DNA from: Lasiodiplodia sp. COLG20
Taxonomy: Eukaryota; Ascomycota; Dothideomycetes; Botryosphaeriales; Botryosphaeriaceae
Direction of reading: 5' to 3'
NCBI GenBank assembly: GCA_009801085.1
Contig: VNWV01000002.1
Coordinates: 3,906,001 to 3,970,000 of the forward strand
DNA: 64,000 nt
Of this stretch, positions 15,993-18,930 are shown in pieces (the first letter of the stretch is position 1; each line of letters starts with the position of its first letter). The translations under genes and the position numbers were made by a program. The notes below the pieces were generated by a model. The model did not search any database and was not told where the DNA came from. It saw nothing but the letters and a program-made list of their open reading frames with translations.

Positions 15993-18930
15993 ATGACCCA
16001 GGAAACAAAGCGGCTGACTTACCGTGTGAGTGGGTTGCCACCGCGAGTAGATGAAGCCGGCGTTAAGGATATCTTGAGAGAATTATTGGATAAAAGCAAG
16101 GACAATGAAGAGGATTGCATTCGCATCCAAGTGCTTTCCCTCGCGCGGAGTCTGAGTGTGGCCACAGAAACTCCCACGAAGCAGGCAACTGTCACTATAG
16201 ACCCTTCCCAAAGACTCTTGCAGGGCAAGCTGCTCTTTTCACCTACGTATAGAGGAGCCGAATACTCGGTCACGATCGATCGAGACTTCCTAGGCTTCAC
16301 AGTACTCAATGACGTACATGACGACGAGCTCCTCCTCAAGTCTGTATAGTAGCCCTCAGAGTTGGTCCACTTCGCTAACAGGCCATAGTTGTGTTGCAAT
16401 AAGTGGCCTTGCAAGCCACCCATTTGGGTCATGGCAACGACGTCAAGACAGACACGGAAAATCCTCCATGTGGCTGAGAGACGAGCTCCCGAAGGATTTG
16501 CAGCGAACTAGAGTGATCACATACGGCTATGATACTCAACTGGACACAGCTTCTTTCCAAAACATCCAAGATTTGGCCACGGCATTCAAGAACAAACTAC
16601 GCGCCTTTGGCTTCGAGTCGGCCTCGGCAAAGCCGATAGTTTTCCTCGCTCACAGCCTTGGAGGCATTATTCTCAAACAAGCCTTCATTCAGGCAATGAA
16701 TTCGAGAATCCCTACTTTACTGGAAAACACAAAAGCATGTCTGTGTTTCGGTGTGCCAAATCGTGGCATGACAATCGATCAGTTAGCTACGTTGGTCTAT
16801 GGCTACCCGACAAAAAACTTAGTCCATGATCTCTCTGTTGAATCGAAGGAATTGGAAGAGATCGACCGTAAATTCAAAGAGCTTCAGGAAGCCCAGAGCT
16901 TGGACATCATATCGTTCTACGAGACGAAAATGACGAAGACCGTGGAGGTATGTCTGCCATGCAATATTTTCTAAATGTTCTCTGTTGATGAACCATCCTT
17001 AGCAATCGAACGACGGCAAATGGAGTAGATGTGGCCGTGAAGTAATCATGGTCGAGCGCGAATCAGCAATCATGTCATGCTCCCGGGACGTGCATCCTAT
17101 CAACAAAGACCACTCGGCGATGGTAAAGTTCGAACCAAAGGACGACGACTATACCATCGTGAGAGGCCATCTTTATGAGATCTTGATGGAACTTGTTGAA
17201 TATGAAGCTCAAAAGACTGTCCCAGTCGCTAAAGCACCCTCGAAACCTCTTGTCTATTCACTATGCAAGAAAACTAATGCCATCACCTTTTTGGGTTACC
17301 AAAAGAACACGTTCGATTGGGACAAGTTTCGCTCAATTGACAATTTGCAAATCAGCTTCCGGCGAACTGTAAGAGTTCACGAAAACGGCACGACCACCGA
17401 CCAACCTCCTGACCTGGGTGCATTTCCGATCTATGACACCAAAAAGTACCCAGAGCATTTCAGATCTCACAACGGGTACTTCATACCCATATACCGTAAG
17501 TCGTGACAAGCATCAGTTGTATACAAGGCCTTGGACTTACCTTTTATAGAGAGGGAAGCTTTCTGGATACAATTTTCGTCTGAATCGCCCTATGCCATCA
17601 AAATCTATTTGGGAGGGATCAATGCGATTTCGGGGGAGCCAAGAGAAGAGACAGATGTTACTCGTATTCGCCGCCTGATATTAGGAGCTCGAAAGATGCC
17701 ACTCCAAGACTATGTTGTCACACCAGAGCAAAAGGCTATCTACGGGATCGCACATCAAGACGGCAATGTTCGACAATTCGTCGCAATGCCCATGGGATCT
17801 GGCTATTCCGTCGAAATTCAAGTGACCAAAGAGGAGATCTTTGGGGGACTGCAGATCGAAGTCACACCTACTTATCCGCCGGTCGACGCATTGCCCGGCC
17901 CTTGGCCCATTGTTGTCAGGACCTATTCGAATTCTTATATCGTCCAGGTTCGACCAACCAGCACTATCGACGAAGTAAAGTCCCTCCTGCAAGATATGAC
18001 AGAGATTCCCGTTGACCAACAGCGGTTGATCTTCTCTGGAAAACAGCTTGAAAACGGGAGGACTTTGTCCGACTATAACATACAAATCGTGAGTCAAATC
18101 CTCTCATCTACGAAAGAAGAAGACGTTTTTTGAGTTTGATTCTAAGATATGACTAGAAGTCCTGCATCCATCTTGTTCTGAGGCTCCGAGGTGGGGGCCC
18201 GGTGGAGTATGATGAATTCATGAGTGTTGCTGTGAGCGGGTGCATCGGACAAGTCATTCATCTCGATGATTCCGGCCCTCAAACATGGGATAGCTCAAGG
18301 ACTACATGTGTAGATATTCAACTCCTCGACTGTGAGGTGTTCAAGAGGGTTACAGGCCTTGATCCTCCGGAACAACCCATTAGCGCCGTGGAGTACCGAG
18401 AACGCGGGTATCCATACCATGAGCGTTCTAACAAGGAAACTAGTGAGCTCAACACAATGTTTGCTGATGTCAGGCCTGTCAACCGGATTGACAAAGAACG
18501 ATTGCGGACGCGGATTCCCGAAGATGCGATCAAGCAACTGGAGATGGCGGTGGCAGTTTCAAAGATCCAGGGCAACAGCCAGGAAACGAGAGGATTCCGA
18601 CATCGAAGGACGTTAGAGGGAGAGGTTGAAAAAGCTCTGCAAAATCCGAACTTGAAGAGGGAACTACGCGGTATAGAAGGGCCAAGGATCGAGAGATTTC
18701 CTCTGACGCTCCCAGAGAGGAGAAGAACATGGGGCCCAGAAGATGAAAGCTCGGAAGATGGAAGTTCGGAGGATGGGAGGACGGAAGATGAAAGGGTGGA
18801 AAATCAGAATACTAGGGATAAAGACGAAGGACGGGAAAGTACCCTGTATCGTTGGTTACGGGAAGTCTTCCGTAGAATACCACGGGTTGTTGTTGTGAAG
18901 AGGAGCGGAAAGCTCAAGAGGGCGAACTAA
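15993..18930 (+). CDS. SesB-like alpha/beta hydrolase with internal ubiquitin domain, ~904 aa
   Basis: Five exons, best read as 15993-16313, 16360-16947, 17003-17495, 17550-18088 and 18157-18930. The first intron is ambiguous: 46 nt (16314-16359) or 64 nt (16338-16401); both keep frame. Residues ~1-105 are the domain that precedes SesB hydrolases in fungi. Then comes an alpha/beta hydrolase with [21 protein letters not shown] and nucleophile motif AHSLGG (Ser ~206). A middle region of ~280 aa is unassigned. Residues ~587-660 are a ubiquitin fold with [20 protein letters not shown] and LRLRGG; intron 4 lies within it. A C-terminal ~240 aa continues past the GG, ending acidic then basic. Known SesB domains are the N-terminal effectors of fungal NLRs. 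No NACHT domain is present here. Confidence 0.85.

What the first reader, a model, noticed from the sequence alone, without database searches (positions are those of the whole stretch)
15993..18930. Hydrolase-ubiquitin fusion: ubiquitin domain inside a SesB-type protein
Seen: one spliced frame runs from an AHSLGG alpha/beta hydrolase into a ubiquitin fold with [16 protein letters not shown] and LRLRGG, then on for ~240 residues. Known: SesB hydrolases are N-terminal effectors of fungal NLRs, and ubiquitin precursors are cut after the GG by deubiquitinases. Inference: the protein could be cut after LRLRGG, releasing a hydrolase with a C-terminal ubiquitin able to act in conjugation, or the domain could be a fixed docking module. 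The Lys at ubiquitin position 48 is kept, while position 63 is Ile and position 6 is Arg. There is no NACHT domain, so the trigger and effector logic differs from known NLRs.
Basis: partly seen in the sequence, partly recalled or inferred. Interest (0 to 1): 0.86.

Follow-up and report, generated by a model that had tools for sequence, protein, structure and literature searches.

The report
Ubiquitin lodged inside NACHT-less death effector
A fungal gene is predicted to make a lipase-like hydrolase of the kind that heads fungal immune receptors, but joined to a bacterial-type protein core with a ubiquitin lodged inside it, and the ubiquitin's kept cutting site would likely let a ubiquitin-cutting protease switch the protein.

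Summary
Confirmed: five GT-AG exons (15993-18930, +) give a 903-aa predicted protein: N-terminal domain plus SesB-like hydrolase (aa 1-372), then ubiquitin (aa 585-659, Pfam E 1.4e-20, tail RLRGG intact). New here: the stretches before and after the ubiquitin are two parts (A, B) of one conserved core. In bacteria A and B are contiguous (76 of 77 ORFs, linker 21-66 aa); in fungi ubiquitin often sits in that linker (9 of 16 rows of the fungal clade). No Pfam, NCBIfam or PDB match over cut-off names the core. The ubiquitin intron (after codon 63, phase 0) matches the genome's own ubiquitin-L40 gene. The hydrolase half is NLR-type: 117 of 120 listed homologs carry a NACHT-type P-loop domain; here A-ubiquitin-B stands instead. 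None of 31 A-bearing relatives has the hydrolase. The tail R72-G76 is kept far better than the ubiquitin body across nine inserts. Committed reading (inferred): a deubiquitinase-recognised, probably cleaved, joint that would split the core and free or activate the hydrolase. Uncut docking is the main rival. Transcript, cleavage and function are untested; the fungus is unnamed.

The parts
15993..16337 (+). N-terminal domain (aa 1-115), found before the hydrolase in the NLR paralogs too
   Evidence: BLASTP of the window protein hits an upstream ORF in L032, L033 and L034 (38-42% identity); the best homologs align from residue 1
16338..17212 (+). SesB-like alpha/beta hydrolase (aa 116-372), Ser205 and His339 kept; introns 16340-16388 and 16948-17002
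   Evidence: 275 homologs, 117 of the 120 listed with PF24883; conservation; Pfam below cut-off
17249..17872 (+). Core part A (aa 385-574), interrupted by intron 17496-17549
   Evidence: 31 proteins E<=0.001; bacterial loci
17903..18195 (+). Ubiquitin insert (aa 585-659), interrupted by intron 18089-18156 after ubiquitin codon 63
   Evidence: Pfam PF00240 E 1.4e-20; intron compared; alignment; PDB ubiquitin match
18181..18195 (+). Ubiquitin tail RLRGG (R72-G76), followed by Gly-Pro
   Evidence: sequence; conservation
18217..18513 (+). Core part B (aa 667-765)
   Evidence: BLASTP to 30 of 31 A-bearing proteins at E<0.01; own-genome search
18589..18639 (+). C-terminal motif [17 protein letters not shown], like F-R-containing, Glu-rich motifs near the end of the paralog and P0124; no RING here
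   Evidence: read by eye; Pfam finds no RING in the window protein
18640..18930 (+). Charged C-terminal tail ending in a basic stretch, and stop codon
   Evidence: sequence

Best explanation
The predicted 903-aa protein joins an NLR-type SesB-like hydrolase to a bacterial-type two-part core (A and B) whose linker holds a ubiquitin with an intact RLRGG tail, and that ubiquitin is likely a deubiquitinase-recognised, cleavable joint that would split the core and free or activate the hydrolase. Shown: the architecture of the conceptual protein, the relation of A and B to bacterial proteins, the NLR kinship of the hydrolase half, and the kept tail. Inferred: that the hydrolase is the output (cell-death or membrane-lipid attack, as SesB-like domains are thought to act), that A-ubiquitin-B replaces NACHT plus repeats as the regulating half, and that cleavage after Gly76 by a deubiquitinase-like protease is the trigger. 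After such a cut hydrolase-A-ubiquitin would end in a free GG, B and the basic tail would come off, and the predicted A-B core would be disrupted. Whether the protease would be the cell's own or an invader's is open.
For: Hydrolase half: alignment to the 120 listed homologs (of 275) ends at median residue 363, and none of the 120 matches the A-ubiquitin-B half at E<=0.001; 117 of 120 carry PF24883; the three best-matching own-genome paralogs are followed on the same strand by NPHP3_N/NACHT-type domains. Core: A and B contiguous in 76 of 77 bacterial ORFs, predicted together at pLDDT 89.9, pTM 0.88, with the A-B linker the only stretch of three or more residues under pLDDT 50. Insert: same intron after codon 63 as own ubiquitin-L40 and the paralog. 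Tail: mean 8.2 of 9 kept versus 5.61 of 9 for the body; R72, G75, G76 in 9 of 9; window insert 41 of 71 in the body but 5 of 5 in the tail. In the modelled relative P0122 the ubiquitin is confident and residues 278-287, the tail and what follows, are under pLDDT 50, so probably exposed. Precedent for cleavage-switched fungal death effectors: gasdermin HET-Q1 (passages of PMC12881547).
Against: No cleavage, transcript or activity was tested. The tail could be kept as a glycine-rich linker: all ten inserts read run on as GGG (by eye), and P0121 (RVVGG), P0148 (RFCGG) and P0147 (EEQCGGG) lack part of the motif most deubiquitinases read (that preference is recalled). The window ubiquitin lost L8 and one residue of the first hairpin; the I44 patch as a whole is poorly kept (mean 5.0 of 9). 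Body segment 36-43 is kept as well as the tail (4 of 67 body windows reach it). The nine inserts are related, so counts are not independent. No second hydrolase-A-ubiquitin-B protein was found.
Confidence: 0.45

Rival explanations
1. The ubiquitin is a fixed, uncut docking module: it sits in the A-B linker and brings ubiquitin-binding proteins (a proteasome receptor, Cdc48 cofactor or E3) to the hydrolase, with the tail serving only as a flexible linker to B.
For: The insert lies in the linker of a core predicted as one compact protein; GGG follows in 10 of 10 inserts (by eye); two of nine aligned tails lost L73/R74 yet keep GG; some relatives carry RING domains, which fits a standing link to the ubiquitin system.
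Against: A docking module should keep the I44 patch, but the tail and residues R42, Q49 and R72 are kept better; native-like ubiquitin followed by a non-proline residue is normally cut in cells (recalled).
Confidence: 0.33
2. Decoy variant: the degenerate core and ubiquitin are bait for an invader's protease or effector, and tampering with them releases the hydrolase.
For: The window core lost 12 of 48 residues near-invariant in bacteria, W128-L129-D130 among them, while the paralog lost 4; the window row has the longest end branch of the 16-row fungal clade, 1.44.
Against: Fast change can also be decay, and P0123 (37 of 48 kept) and the incomplete P0150 (28 of 48) are hardly better or worse kept; no invader protein is known here; a search for mycovirus, OTU and deubiquitin gave two papers, neither on a fungal virus by its title.
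Confidence: 0.1
3. Two genes, or a mis-joined gene model: hydrolase and A-ubiquitin-B are transcribed apart.
For: The paralog A-ubiquitin-B gene stands alone; a Met (aa 364, in ILMELV) lies before A in exon 3.
Against: Exon 3 (17003-17495) encodes the hydrolase end with its His and the start of A in one frame with no stop, and the model has no intron at the junction.
Confidence: 0.06
4. A decaying relic of a chance fusion without function.
For: Core residues lost; no ortholog of the fusion seen.
Against: 903 codons open over five exons with GT-AG splice sites, Ser205/His339 kept, tail kept 5 of 5.
Confidence: 0.06

Closest known systems
Fungal SesB-like NLRs (SesB-like / NACHT or NB-ARC / repeats; PMC4986451, PMC9815663, PMC12258605, passages seen)
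   Same: N-terminal domain and SesB-like hydrolase; exon break near residue 115 in all three own-genome paralogs read and near residue 302 in two of three (L033, L034; L032 reads through)
   Different: No NACHT/NPHP3_N and no repeats; A-ubiquitin-B stands in their place
Fungal A-ubiquitin-B proteins without hydrolase (own paralog G000:C12:2451407-2452766; Lachnellula P0122, Bisporella P0121)
   Same: A, ubiquitin, B order; same ubiquitin intron in the paralog; GGG after the insert
   Different: They start at or shortly before A; none has the hydrolase
Uncharacterised bacterial A+B proteins (mostly about 330-390 aa, e.g. L045, L036)
   Same: A and B core
   Different: Linker of 21-66 aa, too short for a ubiquitin; 36 of 48 near-invariant residues kept in the window
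Ubiquitin-ribosomal protein fusions (own ubiquitin-L40, L009; the L40 label is recalled from its sequence)
   Same: Ubiquitin with RLRGG followed by another polypeptide; intron after codon 63, phase 0
   Different: There ubiquitin is N-terminal and the follower is L40; here it is internal
Coprinopsis P0151 (MLKL_N-like, A, B)
   Same: A death-effector-like N-terminus joined to the A-B core
   Different: MLKL_N-like (E 1.6e-5, 24.9 bits, below the 27 cut-off) instead of the hydrolase; Pfam finds neither ubiquitin nor RING at E up to 1, though a source names it RING-type

Membership tests
Fungal NLR | NLR-type N-terminal effector domain | tested here: met
   275 homologs of aa 1-372, 117 of 120 listed with PF24883
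Fungal NLR | NACHT or NB-ARC nucleotide-binding domain | tested here: not met
   no such match in the 903 aa at E up to 1
Fungal NLR | C-terminal ANK/TPR/WD40 repeats | tested here: not met
   no repeat family matched at E up to 1
SesB-like hydrolase | nucleophile Ser in its motif and catalytic His kept | tested here: met
   Ser205 kept in 39 of 40, His339 in 40 of 40 of the 40 best of 120 homologs
SesB-like hydrolase | esterase or lipase activity | not testable with these tools
   needs enzyme assay
Ubiquitin family | Pfam PF00240 over its cut-off | tested here: met
   73.3 bits against 25.4
Ubiquitin family | RLRGG tail | tested here: met
   5 of 5
Ubiquitin family | complete L8-I44-H68-V70 patch | tested here: not met
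   I44, H68, V70 kept, L8 replaced by Tyr
Ubiquitin precursor fusion | ubiquitin at the N-terminus of the fusion | tested here: not met
   584 residues precede it
Ubiquitin precursor fusion | cut after Gly76 in cells | not testable with these tools
   needs immunoblot or in vitro assay
A-B core family | A followed by B | tested here: met
A-B core family | residues near-invariant (62 or more of 64) in bacterial rows | tested here: inconclusive
   36 of 48 kept; W128, L129, D130, G159, G204, G208 among those lost
A-B core family | known fold | tested here: inconclusive

The most novel reading that the evidence does not exclude
A receptor-like fungal death protein without any NACHT: a bacterial-derived core split by a captured ubiquitin acts as a protease-sensing fuse, so that a deubiquitinase (its own or an invader's) that cuts after RLRGG breaks the core, unleashes the hydrolase and leaves it carrying a free ubiquitin C-terminus that could itself be conjugated. 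The A-B core would be a general, so far unnamed, regulatory module paired with different death effectors (SesB-like here, MLKL-like in Coprinopsis).
Probability: 0.2. Interest if true: 0.93.

Novelty: new variant of a known kind. Interest (0 to 1): 0.74.

Why it matters
If right, fungi built an immune-type effector whose regulating half is not a nucleotide-binding switch but a bacterial-type core with ubiquitin in its seam. That would allow a direct test of how ubiquitin enzymes can trip a cell-death protein, and it gives a first handle on a widespread, unnamed bacterial protein family. The tail/body contrast and the shared intron also point to a traceable capture of a working ubiquitin gene into another gene.

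Tried and rejected

Rows dropped before counts: of 80 bacterial loci 77 gave an ORF by my motif rule; 60 gave a usable neighbourhood; P0142 was left out of the tree, 46 of 47 rows used, 14 of the 77 bacterial ORFs chosen by me; P0147 and the first ubiquitin copies of P0121, P0124 and P0150 were left out of the nine-insert alignment; 40 of 120 homologs were used for hydrolase conservation.

Full report
Gene model. The window is a 64-kb piece of a 43.5-Mb genome in 88 contigs (contig C12). The finding holds: exons 15993-16339, 16389-16947, 17003-17495, 17550-18088 and 18157-18930 with GT-AG introns encode 903 residues. For the ubiquitin intron with donor 18089 two acceptors keep the frame (intron length 68 or 71); the one at 18156 aligns exactly with ubiquitin, the other would drop a residue. 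No transcript was available.

Hydrolase half. aa 1-372 match 275 proteins, of which 120 were listed; 117 of these 120 carry PF24883 (NPHP3_N, a NACHT-type P-loop domain), the exceptions being P0176, P0197 and P0204. Alignments to the 120 end at a median of residue 363 (345-474), and none of the 120 matches the rest of the protein at E<=0.001. In the own genome the hydrolase gave 89 matching stretches, a lower bound. Its three best-matching paralogs (L032, L033, L034) show the same N-terminal domain and an exon break near residue 115; L033 and L034 also break near residue 302, while L032 reads through there. All three are followed on the same strand by an NPHP3_N match over cut-off, with NACHT over its cut-off in two; their exons were not joined. 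So the first half of the gene is the effector half of an NLR. Ser205 and His339 are kept; Glu294, kept in 40 of 40, is a candidate third member (role recalled from hydrolases in general). SesB-like domains are described as predicted lipases and, indirectly, cell-death effectors in papers of which I saw passages (PMC4986451; PMC9815663).

What surrounds the ubiquitin. aa 385-584 found 31 proteins among 311 candidates. 30 of 31 also match the stretch after the ubiquitin at E<0.01, the exception being P0142; none has the hydrolase (best E 2.8). I call the two stretches A and B. A profile of A found 170 loci in a bacterial and archaeal collection, 80 kept, over many phyla. In 76 of 77 extracted bacterial ORFs B follows A after 21-66 residues. 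Pfam, NCBIfam and PADLOC name nothing over cut-off for the core in the members tried. The bacterial core from L045 is predicted at pLDDT 89.9 and pTM 0.88; the only stretch of three or more residues under pLDDT 50 is the A-B linker, residues 186-200. So A and B are most likely one compact unit, and the ubiquitin sits in its loop; coordinates were not inspected. In the relative P0122 the model shows a confident ubiquitin between A and B and a low-confidence tail (pLDDT 76.2, pTM 0.63).

Origin of the insert. A tree of 46 A+B rows, rooted at the midpoint for drawing only, puts the window, its paralog and the named ascomycete rows in a group of 16 (98/96), with Coprinopsis P0151 next to it (17 rows, 97/92). 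15 of the 31 relatives, all unnamed, fall with the bacterial rows, among them ubiquitin-bearing P0148; 15 fall on the fungal side and P0142 was not placed. One origin of the insert is not ruled out and not shown (one change in 68% of bootstrap trees). The window's place inside the group is weakly supported (94/48). Pfam finds ubiquitin at E<=0.01 in 8 of 40 proteins scanned, all among the 31 relatives, 7 of them on the fungal side; window and paralog add two. The intron after ubiquitin codon 63, phase 0, is shared by window, paralog and the genome's own ubiquitin-L40 gene; own polyubiquitin and ubiquitin-S27a exons break elsewhere (these gene labels are recalled from sequence). Capture from an L40-type ubiquitin gene with its intron is the simplest inference. 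Some relatives carry RING domains: zf-C3HC4_3 at or over its cut-off in P0125 and P0148, weaker in others.

Constraint on the insert. Nine inserts were aligned. The body is kept in 5.61 of 9 on average, the tail R72-G76 in 8.2 of 9; R72, G75 and G76 in 9 of 9; seven of nine have RLRGG complete; P0147, left out, ends EEQCGGG. Only 4 of 67 five-residue windows of the body, all within residues 36-43, reach the tail's value; 299 of 100,000 random five-residue body sets do. The I44 patch scores 5.0 of 9. Residues kept in all nine: T7, P37, D39, Q41, R42, G47, Q49, Y59, R72, G75, G76. That R42, Q49 and R72 lie on the side read by E1 and deubiquitinases is recalled, not tested. These sequences are related, so the contrast is suggestive only.

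The window's own core is less well kept than most: 36 of 48 residues near-invariant in 64 bacterial rows, with W128, L129 and D130 lost. The paralog keeps 44, P0121 41, P0122 42, P0124 42, P0125 43, P0123 37; P0127 (cut at its N-terminus) 30 and P0150 (lacking a stretch) 28. Its end branch, 1.44, is the longest of the 16-row group. Whatever the core does in bacteria is thus perhaps lost here, and a regulating or bait role is more likely than catalysis; this is inference.

Mechanism. Put together: NLR effector, no NACHT, regulating half made of a core with a seam that carries a probably exposed, conserved protease-type site. I commit to a cleavage switch (0.45), with uncut docking next (0.33). 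A second pairing of the core with a death-type domain, the MLKL_N-like start of Coprinopsis P0151 (E 1.6e-5, below Pfam's cut-off), supports the thought that the core regulates effectors, but it is one weak case. Proteolytic switching has precedent in fungal gasdermins (HET-Q1; passages of PMC12881547).

Literature. Searches listed no paper that describes a hydrolase-ubiquitin protein, or this core, in title or abstract start; only open-licence papers are held, and only part of the matching papers was listed.

Noticed in passing
G000:C12:2451407-2452766 (L010:2623-4279): A second gene in the same genome with A, ubiquitin and B but no hydrolase; tail LILRLRGGGGGE and the same ubiquitin intron.
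   Followed up: yes
P0151 (Coprinopsis marcescibilis), residues 5-103: MLKL_N-like N-terminus before the A-B core (E 1.6e-5, 24.9 bits against a cut-off of 27); a source names the protein RING-type, but Pfam showed no RING at E up to 1.
   Followed up: partly
P0148, residues 374-443: A ubiquitin insert plus RING in a row that falls on the bacterial side of the tree: perhaps a second, independent insertion of ubiquitin at the same place.
   Followed up: partly
L041:5575-5919, L071:1489-1839 and other bacterial loci: A protein of mostly about 116 aa recurs beside the bacterial A+B gene in 17 of 60 loci over several phyla, directly upstream in the 16 printed; the four scanned are HTH (XRE-like) proteins.
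   Followed up: partly
KX853510.1:3216-4300 and LR756511.1:437839-438699: Relatives of the bacterial core in two phage-collection records of 197 kb and 595 kb.
   Followed up: no
L076:177-2270: Bacterial A+B core fused to TPR repeats (698 aa).
   Followed up: no
window:11763-14594 (-): Long single open frame that reads like a dynamin-type GTPase (IVVIGDQSTGKSSVINAI; recalled motif).
   Followed up: no
window:19416-20970 (+): Next gene downstream reads like a mannose-1-phosphate guanylyltransferase (recalled).
   Followed up: no
window:16001-18000: GC of 0.477 against 0.553 and 0.556 in the neighbouring 2-kb bins.
   Followed up: no
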